64,000 nt of DNA from Lobulomyces angularis (lineage: Eukaryota; Chytridiomycota; Chytridiomycetes; Lobulomycetales; Lobulomycetaceae), in NCBI GenBank assembly GCA_027604685.1, contig JADHYX010000041.1:348-64347 (forward strand). The letters are read 5' to 3'. Each line of letters opens with the position of its first letter. Position 1 is the first letter of the stretch. This document shows positions 3,045 to 45,784 of the stretch, piece by piece. Under the pieces are notes generated by a model. It was given only the letters and a program-made list of their open reading frames with translations. It ran no database searches and was not told where the DNA came from. The position numbers and the translations under genes are program-made.

Positions 3045-6000
3045 ATGATCTGTAAAAATTGCTTCATTCAAAAATTGCTAAAAGCAAAATCACTTTCAAC
3101 AAATTATAGTTATTTTTCGAGTACCACAAATAAATTTTACAGAAAGAATTTAAATTTGAAGACGATTATATATCATGAATCTTATTTAAAAATTAATTAT
3201 ATAAAAAGTAAAAGTTTGATAAGTTCAGTAGTCAATTTTTCAAGAGGACTTAGCACAATAATTTATGATCAGTCATCAAATTTTAGTAATAAAAAAATTT
3301 ACATATTTTGGGCTTAATTTTCTTCAAAATAAAAAAATTGTATTTTCTAAAAAGAAATGAGTGACGAGTTAAACGCGTTAGATCTATTAATAACCGAACA
3401 AGGTGATAAAGTTAGATCATTAAAAGCTCAAAAGATAACCAAAGCAGAATTACAACCCGAATTAGATAAGCTGAAGCAATTGAAATCTGAAAGAGACATT
3501 GTTGCTGAAAAATTGACAACTAAAGAACGAAAGTTTGATAGGAATACCTTAGAAGCATTGCTATCCAGAAGATTTTTCATAGCTCCTTCATTTCAAATTT
3601 ATGGTGGTACGCATTTTTAAGTTTTTCAGTCACACTTTTAAATTTTATATATTACTTATGGCTAATTTAACTGATTTTTGATCTAAGGTGTCTCTGGTCT
3701 CTATGATTACGGTCCACCAATGTGTGGTCTTCAGAACAATTTTCTTTCCCTTTGGCGTCAACACTTTGTTTTAGAGGAGGATATGCTAGAGTTAGAATGC
3801 ACTAATTTGTCTCCGGAAGAAGTTCTTAAGGTGAGAAAAAATAAAAAATTTCTAATACACAAATTTCAAGATGTTAGTCATATGAGTTAATTTAAACTTT
3901 TTTTGCCCTTTAAGACTTCTGGCCATGTGGAAAGATTTACAGATGATATGGTAAAAGATTTGGTTACTGGTGATATTTTTAGAGCTGATCATTTGGTGAA
4001 AGCTGTATTAAATCAAAGGCTAGAGGACGATGAAACTTTAAGAAAGAAGCCTGGCGCTCCAGACAGCAAAAAAAAAAAAAAACTGGAAAAATTAGAAGAT
4101 AGCGTAAGAGAAGAATATTTGAATATTTTGGAAACTGTAAGCTGAATGCAAAGTTTTTTTTTATTAACAAATTCGGTTATCCGTACAGCTGGACAATTAC
4201 CAAGGACCAGAGTTAGCGAAATTAATAAGGCACTTGAATATTAAAGCTCCAGAAACACAAAATGAATTAAGTGAGCCTGTTAGATTCAACTTGATGTTTG
4301 ACACTCAAATCGGTCCAACTGGTCAGTTAAAAGGATACCTTAGACCTGAAACAGCACAAGGTCACTTTGTTAATTTTAAAAAACTCTTAGAATTTAATAC
4401 CGGTCAGATCCCTTTTGCTTCCGCCTCTATTGGTAAAAGTTTTAGAAATGAAATATCCCCAAAGCAAGGCTTATTACGTGTTAGAGAGTTTACCATGGCG
4501 GAAATCGAGCATTACGTAGATCCTGAAAATAAAAAGCACCCAAAATTTGTGGAAGTGGAAAACGAAATTTTGTCGTTTTATTCTGCAGAAAATCAGTTGA
4601 AAGCAGCTGGCCCAGTCCAAATGACAATTGGTGAAGCCGTTAAAAAGGTTGAATTAGGATTTTCGGTGTTAGAAATTAATATTTTTTTTATATAGGGAAT
4701 TGTTAACAACCAAACGTTAGGTTATTTTGTTGCTAGAATCTATCTATTTTTGGTAAAAATTGGTATTGATCCAAAGAGACTTCGCTTTAGACAACATATG
4801 AAAAATGAAATGGCCCATTATGCATGTGATTGTTGGGACGCCGAAATTGAATCTTCGTATGGATGGATAGAGAGTGTTGGATGTGCTGACCGTTCTGCGT
4901 TTGATTTAACTTGTCACAGCAAAAAAACTGGAGAAAAATTAGTTGTTCGTGAAGCGTTGGCTAAGCCAATTATAAAAGATTGTTTAGTACTGGAATTCAA
5001 TAAGAAAGTGTTGGGGCCAGCTTTTAGAAAAAATGCAAAATTTGTAGAAGAGGGCTTGGAATCAATGAAATTAGATGAAGAGGAATTTAAGCAAGACGAA
5101 TTAGAGAAGTTGAAAAAGCAATTTGATTCTAATGGAGGTATCGCTAAAATTATTGGTTCTGATGGAAATGAATACGAAATTAGCGACAAAATGATTCAAG
5201 TGGTTAAAAAAACTATTAAGAAATCTAGTAAGTACCGTATTTAATTAAGTGTAAGAGTTGTTTTAGAGAGAAAAGTTGGAAAACGCACATTCTTTAGATC
5301 CCATTACATAGAAAGTTGTAACTTTCTCTCTGCCTTTTCGCAGTGTTAGTTGTTTTGGAATGAGTCATTAGTGTGCTACATTAAACGAATCATCCAAAAT
5401 TTGAAGGTTTTCTTCTTATGTGGATTTCTTTTTATAATTTTTACACTTCAATTTTTTCTTACGTTATTTCTTTTATCAGTTATCTTTTTATTATTTTACT
5501 CTTTTTTGAGTATTATATGTAAGAGTTTAACGGATGATTGAAAGTATATCTTTTTTTTGAGAAATGAATTAATTAATAAAATTATAAAGAATATTTTTAT
5601 TTTTTATATTTTTTTTTACAAAAAAAAATCGGGATTTATTAATGTTTTTTTTTTATAGTTCGCGAATATGTACCCAATGTCATCGAACCGTCTTTTGGTA
5701 TTGGTAGAATACTCTATGCTCTTTTAGAGCATAGATTTAATATTAGAGAAGGTGACGAAGCAAGACATGTCTTATCTTTTCCAGCATCCATAGCCCCTTT
5801 TAAGGCATTAATAGTTCCAATTAGTCATAACGATGCGTTTTTACCATTTATTAAACAAATTTGTATGTATTTAATTTTTGTTTTGTTTTAATTTTTTTTC
5901 TTTAAGCTGTTGGACTTCGAAAACGTGGAATGAGCAACAAAATTGATGACAGTGCAAGTAGTTTAGGTAAAAGATATGCTAGAAATGACGAATTGGGCAC

Positions 6001-41708: not shown

Positions 41709-42100
41709 TTAAAAACGTAGCATTAATTAATGAGTTTTTAAAAGAAAGAAAACAGGTAGACTTTGATTTTGGTCGCCGGCACTTTTGAAGAACTTGACAA
41801 ATCAATTTTCTTTTTAATCTGATCCTTTCTTTCTAATGTTATTTTATATTTTCTCTAAAAACAAAAAGGTAATTTTTATTTTCATTATTTAAGATAAAAG
41901 AAAAAAAATAAAAAAAAAATTAACTATTTAATACCTTAGAAATTATAAATTAGTTTACTGTAAACTTTATCTAAAATAAAGTTTTCCATTTACGTCTTTT
42001 GTTGAAGGACAGAGACTAGTGCCAATCACAATTAACCAATCAGCAGAACCAATTTTTTTATTAAAACAAAAAAAGTTTTAACACTTTTTTTTTTTTTTTT
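41709..42100. other. intergenic region upstream of the PQ-loop gene
   Basis: About 390 bases with A- and T-runs; it contains the promoter of the minus-strand PQ-loop gene and leads into the Fanzor-like remnant. A T-run ends at 42100. Confidence 0.5.
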
Positions 42101-42396
42101 CATTTACTTCAACTGGCGGGTATTCCTAAAGCTGAAACCAATTCTGTGCTATTTGTATTTGGAGATGCTGAATTCAGTACATTCAAAGGACTTCCTTTAG
42201 CTTACACTGTCTTCCAAAATATTTTTATAAAAAAGCAAGAGCTAGTTACGATGAATATTTTACTTCTCAAACATGCCCAAGGTGTCTGGAGCAACTTTCA
42301 CAGATTCTCATAAGAGTAAAATATTGTGAAAATGTTTAGTATATTTTCATTGGTAGTAAGAGATTGTATGGCTTTCTTGCTAGAAGTGTTTTGATT
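42101..42396 (+). pseudogene. decayed Fanzor / TnpB-like nuclease C-terminal fragment
   Basis: Three short phrases in three frames follow the order seen in the C-terminal half of Fanzor (eukaryotic TnpB-related) proteins. First, 42101-42230: VLFVFGDAEFSTFKGLPL, resembling the GDAxFS..xKG.P block. Second, after a frame change near 42232: ARASYDEYFTSQTCPRCLEQ (to about 42297), matching the DEYxTSxxCxxC zinc-ribbon entry, then VKYCEN and a stop. Third, 42351-42392 in another frame: VVRDCMAFLLEVF, like the RDxNA block bearing the third RuvC acidic residue. No ATG opens the first frame, and the upstream RuvC-I half is absent. Frame breaks mean it cannot make an active enzyme. The identification rests on motif order only; an unrelated chance match is possible. 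Confidence 0.5.
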
Positions 42397-43121
42397 ATTA
42401 ATTGTAGGCTAAATAGATTTGGATGATAAGAATTACACTAAAAGCTTTATTTTTGTAACTTAAAATTGTTTCTTTTTTTTTGTATATTTAGACCACCTCA
42501 TCCACTTTGTTGCACCTACTCAATCACCAAAACTTCCAGATCGTGGTTCAGTTTCTATGAACTTTTCAGCAGTTTTTTCCTAATGACATATCGGCAGTCG
42601 TTAACACCAATACCTCCAATGTAATTTAAACAATTAACTTTTTTTGTGTGAAGTGTTAATTCTGTTGTATTATACAACAAGAACACTTTTATTGTTTTAG
42701 GAAAACTAGTAAACTATTTTGACTATTCTAAATCAGTCAATTAACTGTAAAAAAAGTCAACCAACTGAATTATTTAAGTTGAGCGTTGTAATAAAACGTT
42801 CATATTTTATTTGTTTCGGCCATTTGGACCTCTCAAATAACTTTATTGCAATATAAGTATAAATAGAGGAATTAAATTCAAGACCAACTCAGATCAGAAA
42901 TTATTGCTTTTAAAACTTAATGGATAATTAATTAAAGAGAAACTTCGATGCTTCAAAATTTCTCAGAAAAATAAACGTTTAATACTGAGAGGAAATAAAA
43001 AAAAAGTAAAATTGTAATGCAAAATGAGTGTGTATATTAAAAATTGTTATAAATATAATTTTTATGATAGTTTTTTCCAAAAATTCCTAAAACTGATGAT
43101 GAAATATTTTTTTGAAAAATT
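42397..43121. other. intergenic region, possible element remainder
   Basis: About 720 bases. A segment at 42481-42582 (after TATATTTAG) reads open for about 30 codons on plus (HFVAPTQSPKLPDRGSVSMN) and may belong to the same decayed element. No terminal inverted repeats or target-site duplication could be made out. The rest is AT-rich, downstream of the MYST gene. Confidence 0.4.

Positions 43122-45784
<2,663 letters not shown>

What the first reader, a model, noticed from the sequence alone, without database searches (positions are those of the whole stretch)
42101..42396. Frame-broken Fanzor/TnpB-like nuclease fossil
GDAEFSTFKG, DEYFTSQTCPRC and RDCMA occur in the order of the C-terminal RuvC and zinc-ribbon part of Fanzor proteins, but in three frames within 300 bases. 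Fanzors (RNA-guided eukaryotic relatives of TnpB) are known from chytrids, so a remnant here fits the host. It would mark past element activity and suggest intact copies elsewhere in the genome.
Basis: partly seen in the sequence, partly recalled or inferred. Interest (0 to 1): 0.75.

Follow-up and report, generated by a model that had tools for sequence, protein, structure and literature searches.

The report
Decayed Fanzor-like nuclease gene remnant
The stretch is the broken tail end of a jumping-gene enzyme related to CRISPR-type RNA-guided DNA cutters, one of many such remnants in the genome of a small chytrid fungus, and it belongs to an unusual branch of that enzyme family.

Summary
The three phrases are present, but in two frames, not three, and RDCMA is not the catalytic RuvC-III "RD": it aligns with family ECMA, and the RD codons are deleted. 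The stretch is a 5'-truncated, frame-broken copy of a TnpB/Fanzor-type gene, homologous from about 42095 to 42646. tblastn gives 61 bits against at most 28 in shuffled windows; DNA matches siblings at 67-88%. The host is a chytrid, Lobulomyces angularis. The family has 39 protein matches on 28 contigs, window included; none covers P0002 uninterrupted. A younger subfamily has similar right ends; 13 of 39 matches start at base 1-2 of a contig, so better copies may be unassembled. Most matches keep the 3' end and start at varied 5' points. By the fingerprint in PMC10711439 the family has the Fanzor relocated Glu, but RuvC-I is DLG, not DPG, in 4 of 4 genomic copies where it is legible. A second family in this genome has DPG and the relocated Glu. 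So: TnpB/Fanzor kin, a non-DPG variant, fossil here.

The parts
42095..42262 (+). Coding remnant before the zinc ribbon (family FRDMLALADIPNN..SVLFVFGDADFSTFRG..FFIKK), frame of GDAEFSTFKG; the copy is 5'-truncated about here and RuvC-I is absent
   Evidence: tblastn P0002 residues 208-269, 51.6% id, E 5.9e-13. A looser match runs up to window 41855 (P0002 from residue 133) at 38% identity with seven stops, so the 5' limit is approximate
42199..42327 (+). Second frame: relocated RuvC-II Glu (E of DEYFTSQTC, codon 42253-42255), first zinc knuckle CPRC, start of the second knuckle (KYC)
   Evidence: tblastn P0002 residues 248-297, 52% id, E 4.1e-9; phrase position; Glu aligned
42328..42420 (+). 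Decayed RuvC-III region: R-D codons deleted; RDCMA (42359-42373) corresponds to family ECMA
   Evidence: DNA alignment with six other copies
42425..42491 (+). Probable spliceosomal intron (limits approximate) ending ...tatatttag; 5' splice site not recognisable in this copy
   Evidence: Alignment with old copies, one of which (C293) reads AG|GTAAG, and a TTTAG|ACC 3' site shared with several copies; inferred by eye, no transcript data
42492..42583 (+). Last exon, Pro/Ser-rich C-terminal tail ending in TAA (42581-42583)
   Evidence: Aligned with last exons of other copies; translation
42584..42646 (+). Right-end region of the element shared with other copies, including copies in which only the 3' end was matched; the exact terminus (GTGTAACNNAG elsewhere) is not recognisable in this copy
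   Evidence: blastn and alignment

Best explanation
Window 42095 to about 42646 is a dead, 5'-truncated copy of a mobile element of the chytrid Lobulomyces angularis whose gene encoded a compact TnpB/Fanzor-type nuclease (RuvC motifs split around a zinc ribbon, with the catalytic Glu relocated to six residues before the first CxxC). By analogy with TnpB and Fanzor, the intact protein would have bound an RNA made from the element's right end and cut DNA matching its guide; this is inferred, not shown. New copies arose in a way that preserved the 3' end and often lost the 5' end (shown as a pattern in matches; one-ended transposition or a reverse-transcription route is inferred). The window copy then decayed by substitutions and indels.
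For: Two tblastn matches and a shuffle control. PF07282 over its cut-off for the annotated relatives P0002 and P0003 and for the L005 and L003 pieces. 41 DNA matches in the genome, self included; 39 protein matches on 28 contigs, window included. P0002 fits the D{P}G..Ealt..CxxC..CxxC..D expression. Of 43 matches to the last 691 bases of the C107 copy, 34 (self included) reach its right end; 8 others touch its first 213 bases (40 of 48 candidates were scored). The N-terminal stretch has 3 further copies. Divergence of the window from eight old copies is similar in coding (74-80% identity), intron (71-85%) and post-stop (53-86%) DNA, with the last exon at 57-76%, which suits decay without selection.
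Against: RuvC-I is DLG, not DPG. N-terminal pieces of the family match no TnpB or RuvC family in Pfam, and P0002 reaches only 30 bits against NCBIfam's TnpB cut-off of 100. PDB searches gave nothing convincing: L005, L037 (no match), profile A1 best E 0.06. No covarying RNA structure in 19 right ends and no unusual folding in six (z -1.85 to 1.21). The AlphaFold model of P0002 was poor (mean pLDDT 38.7), so the fold is untested. Helitron_like_N gave no match, but its control rang nowhere.
Confidence: 0.88

Rival explanations
1. A Fanzor1 in the strict sense whose RuvC-I motif drifted from DPG to DLG within the Lobulomycetales; nothing else is unusual.
For: Relocated Glu, chytrid host, probable intron and element-borne gene all suit Fanzor1. 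The paper says near exclusively, not always, DPG, and calls Fanzor1s divergent.
Against: All four legible genomic RuvC-I sites, one of them in the diverged copy C153, and the three annotated proteins read DLG. A profile of the family matched IS605 OrfB-type chains (E about 0.06) but no chain named Fanzor in the PDB at E up to 10.
Confidence: 0.6
2. An independent eukaryotic acquisition of a bacterial DPhiG + Ealt TnpB, separate from the Fanzor lineage.
For: P0002 fits the D{P}G + Ealt expression, and PMC10711439 describes a separate DPhiG + Ealt clade. The same genome holds a distinct DPG + Ealt family, so two lineages coexist.
Against: No relative outside the Lobulomycetales was found. These searches need shared words or family-specific peptides and limit protein length, and one search scored only part of its candidates, so this is weak. 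No tree was built.
Confidence: 0.22
3. A retired host gene (domesticated nuclease pseudogene) rather than a mobile-element copy.
For: The window copy lies between other open frames and is broken.
Against: Many dispersed copies with a shared right end and variable 5' starts.
Confidence: 0.03
4. Chance resemblance of short motifs in AT-rich DNA.
For: The three phrases alone are short and one was misread.
Against: 61.2 bits against a shuffled maximum of 28.1; hundreds of aligned bases at about 70% identity with siblings.
Confidence: 0.01

Closest known systems
Fanzor1 elements of chytrids (SPu-1 / SpuFz1 of Spizellomyces punctatus)
   Same: Element-borne nuclease gene in a chytrid; many copies in which only the right-end part is matched, comparable with the 'ghost' loci reported there
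   Different: RuvC-I DLG here; a probable intron, where SPu-1 has a single open frame; terminal inverted repeats could not be judged because the left end was not found; no guide RNA demonstrated
CRe-1/2/3 Fanzor1 families of Chlamydomonas (Helitron-type, one-ended)
   Same: Frequent 5' truncation with intact 3' ends; gene with several exons
   Different: No Helitron protein match here, control uninformative; no target-site duplication was seen by eye at the few junctions printed
TnpB-like protein L79 (PDB 9b0l; mimivirus origin recalled) and Fanzor2
   Same: Same superfamily, zinc ribbon
   Different: It is the genome's second family (L001/L002) that matches L79 (E 9e-31) and has DPG; the window's family aligns to that second family only over 62 zinc-ribbon columns
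Bacterial IS605 OrfB-type chains in the PDB (7wju and four others; that they are Cas12f-type is recalled)
   Same: Zinc-ribbon part, weak profile match, E about 0.06
   Different: 7wju has P where the window's family has the relocated E (alignment); eukaryotic host and probable intron here

Membership tests
TnpB/Fanzor superfamily (motif of PMC3627910) | D-X(125,275)-[TS][TS]XX-[C4 zinc finger]-X(5,50)-RD, in the family | tested here: met
   P0002: RuvC-I D111, TSQT at 276 (164 residues between), CPIC...CVDC, 5 residues, RD; definition seen
TnpB/Fanzor superfamily (motif of PMC3627910) | Same motif in the window copy itself | tested here: not met
   The window keeps the TSQT-CPRC part only; RuvC-I D absent, second knuckle and RD destroyed: a fossil
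TnpB/Fanzor superfamily | Pfam PF07282 over cut-off | tested here: met
   P0002 48.4 and P0003 27.6 bits (cut-off 26.3); the frame-joined window peptide reaches only 18.4 bits and its single frame none
TnpB (NCBIfam NF040570) | Score over curated cut-off of 100 | tested here: not met
   P0002 30 bits, E 3.1e-7, residues 252-311 only
Fanzor (fingerprint of PMC10711439) | Relocated Glu six residues before first CxxC (Ealt) | tested here: met
   P0002 fits the expression; the Glu is kept in 12 of 19 genomic copies aligned there, the window among them, and changed or lost in 7 (counted by eye)
Fanzor (fingerprint of PMC10711439) | RuvC-I DPG (near exclusively) | tested here: not met
   DLG in P0001, P0002, P0003 and in copies C166, C219, C247 and C153; 4 other aligned copies (C152, C25, C7, C348) are too decayed to read and none shows DPG. 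The window itself has no RuvC-I
Fanzor | Right-end guide RNA and RNA-guided cleavage | not testable with these tools
   Only indirect: no covariation in 19 right ends
Fanzor1 | Kinked REC2 helices / REC insertions | tested here: inconclusive
   AlphaFold model too poor (pLDDT 38.7)
Helitron-borne Fanzor1 | Helitron protein in genome; 3' hairpin; one-ended copies | tested here: inconclusive
   3'-end excess in matches; a palindrome (AATATTGAATTCAATATT) before the young right end in C107 and C247; no Helitron_like_N match but control silent
Second family (L001/L002) as Fanzor | DPG + Ealt | tested here: met
   L002 GVDPGIRD; L001 NEAYTTKTC, but GVDPRIRN at its RuvC-I; relatives P0009, P0010, P0015 fit the full expression, 3 of the 12 proteins (most are fragments)

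The most novel reading that the evidence does not exclude
The Lobulomycetales carry a second, non-DPG relocated-Glu lineage of TnpB-type nucleases that entered eukaryotes independently of Fanzors, spreads by a 3'-preserving mechanism, and coexists with a true DPG Fanzor2-type family in the same genome.
Probability: 0.2. Interest if true: 0.7.

Novelty: new variant of a known kind. Interest (0 to 1): 0.42.

Why it matters
Fanzors are described as one lineage with one molecular fingerprint, DPG plus a relocated Glu (PMC10711439, section 23 read). A eukaryotic family with the relocated Glu but a TnpB-like DLG would either widen that fingerprint or point to a second entry of TnpB into eukaryotes. 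The same genome offers a natural contrast: two nuclease families, with old and young subfamilies of one. The window copy itself is one fossil among many.

Tried and rejected
Guide-RNA structure: RNAalifold on 19 right ends predicted no pairs; six single folds were unremarkable. Excess conservation of the right end: not seen within the old subfamily, so I dropped an early idea that it is under constraint.

Left end of the element: a 77-base unit upstream of the C432 and C217 fossils looked like a left end, but its 17 matches (self included) have sharp edges on both sides; 7 of the 8 on + lie within 700 bases of a contig start, and of the 9 on - the two whose contig length I know (C217, C432) lie near the end. 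I do not claim it. A second candidate at C219:1515 was dropped when three other copies proved to share sequence further upstream, open by eye. The left end is unknown, so terminal inverted repeats could not be tested; a scan for the young right end in the loci at hand gave in the other orientation only the palindrome's own and weak matches.

tRNA association: two tRNA-Asp genes flank the C7 fossil and a tRNA-Ser lies by the C75 copy, but only 2 of 40 loci examined (29 of them of the window's family) hold a tRNA, and the window none; dropped.

Structure route: AlphaFold with a 3-row alignment failed, so no fold search was made. Relatives in viral and genome collections: 155 and 68 stretches matched a pattern, none confirmed.

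Species label: P0005 lies on a 69,585-base L. angularis record and C78 is 69,585 bases. P0001's record (36,265) does not equal C219 (28,286), and P0002's 4,489-base record was not found here as a full match; unexplained.

Papers: PMC10432273 passages and section 7; PMC3627910 passages and section 8; PMC10711439 passages and section 23; all others only as search listings. Lobulomyces with Fanzor and with genome assembly gave 0 papers in this library; none of the 12 papers listed names the species.

Full report
What was checked. The three phrases occur on the + strand at 42161, 42250 and 42359. The first and third share a frame, so there are two frames. Against P0002, an annotated protein of the same family, the first two phrases lie inside matches of 62 and 50 residues at about 52% identity. 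Of 100 shuffled windows, 97 gave some match and the best scored 28.1 bits, against 61.2. The third phrase was over-read: aligned with six other copies, RDCMA falls on ECMA, and the codons for the catalytic R-D are missing from the window copy.

What it is. A PF07282 search of the whole genome gave 7 matches, 5 over the cut-off. They fall into two families. L003 and L005 resemble the window; L001, L002, L004, L006 and L007 belong to the other. A 152-residue piece of L005 has 30 matches in the genome, self included; P0002 has 39 on 28 contigs, window included; the window DNA 42100-42660 has 41, self included. These are lower bounds, and one copy can give several matches. No match covers P0002 in one uninterrupted frame: the best are C219 (residues 1-217, no stop) and, for the C-terminal half, C107 (185-298, one stop). 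The window copy begins near residue 208 of P0002; a looser match reaches back to residue 133 (window 41855) at 38% identity with seven stops. No RuvC-I part was found.

Host. The 341-residue frame at C219 is identical over 93% of its length to HDU92_002858 of Lobulomyces angularis. The other relatives are HDU92_008514 of the same species (94% over 64%) and HK099_002501 of Clydaea vesicula (90% over 34%). A piece of the second family is 100% identical over 65% of its length to a protein on a 69,585-base L. angularis record, the length of contig C78. Both species are Chytridiomycota, order Lobulomycetales.

Anatomy downstream. Copies align on past the zinc ribbon through a T-rich stretch ending in TTTAG|ACC, a Pro/Ser-rich exon and a stop, to a right end. 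Young right ends read, for example...AATATTGAATTCAATATTTGTGTAATAG in C247 and ...TATATATGTGTAACAG in C219. Four old copies (C71, C329, C25, C182) end GTGTAAC(N)(N)AG, out of 14 old sequences aligned. The window's own terminus is not recognisable. The intron is inferred from splice-site-like signals only.

Age and spread. Young copies are 86-98% identical to each other in DNA, and the window is 69-73% identical to six loci. Between the window and eight old copies identity is 74-80% in coding DNA, 71-85% in the intron, 57-76% in the last exon and 53-86% after the stop, which looks like decay without selection after insertion. The young right end has 39 matches at 81-100% identity, self included; 13 of the 39 begin at base 1 or 2 of their contig, as expected if the assembler broke inside closely similar repeats. 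So the absence of an intact copy from the assembly is weak evidence of its absence from the genome.

A 3' bias. Of 43 matches to the last 691 bases of the C107 copy, 34 (self included) reach its right end (40 of 48 candidates were scored). Eight others touch its first 213 bases or nearly so; five of these start at base 12, and none of those five reaches the right end in the same match. At least four matches clear of contig ends (C114, C66, C116, C167) start at bases 381, 382, 435 and 353. The N-terminal stretch has only 3 further copies. Assembly breaks should affect both ends, so the difference suggests 5' truncation, with the caveat that the right end may simply be easier to match. PMC3627910 reports the same pattern in Chlamydomonas Fanzor1 families and reads it as one-ended rolling-circle transposition. 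Here the Helitron test was uninformative, and reverse transcription from the 3' end is not excluded.

Family membership. PMC10711439 gives the Fanzor fingerprint as RuvC-I DPG plus a Glu six residues before the first CxxC, and describes a separate clade with DPhiG plus that Glu. P0002 fits the non-DPG expression. The RuvC-I site is aligned in 8 of 25 genomic places scanned. It is legible in four, C219, C166, C247 and the more diverged C153, and all four read DLG; the other four (C152, C25, C7, C348) are too decayed and none shows DPG. The three annotated proteins also read DLG, one of them being the C219 sequence itself. The relocated Glu is kept in 12 of 19 places aligned there, the window included (counted by eye). 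The second family reads DPG in L002 (DPR in L001) and has the relocated Glu in L001; P0009, P0010 and P0015, 3 of its 12 database relatives, fit the DPG expression. Its profile's best PDB match is TnpB-like protein L79, E 9e-31 (mimivirus origin recalled). The window family's profile reached IS605 OrfB-type chains only weakly, E about 0.06; its single sequences gave nothing convincing, and N-terminal pieces match no TnpB family in Pfam. Profile comparison aligned the two families over 62 columns of the zinc-ribbon part, probability 94.9. I therefore call the window's family TnpB/Fanzor kin with the relocated Glu, non-DPG, and leave strict Fanzor status open.

How it most likely worked. Shown: nuclease-type motifs in relatives, dispersal, a 3' bias, decay. 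Inferred: RNA guidance from the right end, by analogy with SpuFz1, whose 75-nt scaffold lies at the right end (PMC10432273, section 7). Against it: 19 right ends gave no covarying structure, and six single folds were ordinary. Relatives outside the Lobulomycetales were not found, but those searches need shared words or family-specific peptides.

Verdict. The finding is real and mostly read correctly. The fossil is ordinary as such; the interesting point is the family's non-DPG motif beside a DPG family in one genome.

Noticed in passing
L001 (C78), L002 (C123), L004 (C189), L006 (C5), L007 (C102): A second TnpB/Fanzor family, Fanzor2-like (DPG in L002, relocated Glu; best PDB match TnpB-like protein L79), with 28 matches in the genome, 25 of them with stops. 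No match in this window better than E 0.01.
   Followed up: partly
L043 (C247): This L. angularis copy matches the Clydaea vesicula protein P0003 at 97% over 71 residues but L. angularis P0002 at 85% over 68: subfamilies shared across genera, or transfer.
   Followed up: no
L042:8603-8684, L050:8401-8483: A 77-base unit with 17 genome matches (83-100%, self included), 7 of 8 on + within 700 bases of a contig start; possibly subtelomeric or the edge of a repeat. Unexplained.
   Followed up: partly
L036:1560-1760: Apparent internal tandem duplication of the 'ECMAHxAWCVLNFH' segment after RuvC-III in the C167 copy, read by eye.
   Followed up: no
L048:3798-3869 and 5891-5962: Two tRNA-Asp genes on the same strand flank the C7 fossil; no general tRNA association (2 of 40 loci).
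   Followed up: yes
window 45035-45415 (-): Open frame with a PHD-finger-like pattern ([12 protein letters not shown]...WFCNSC); label recalled, not tested.
   Followed up: no
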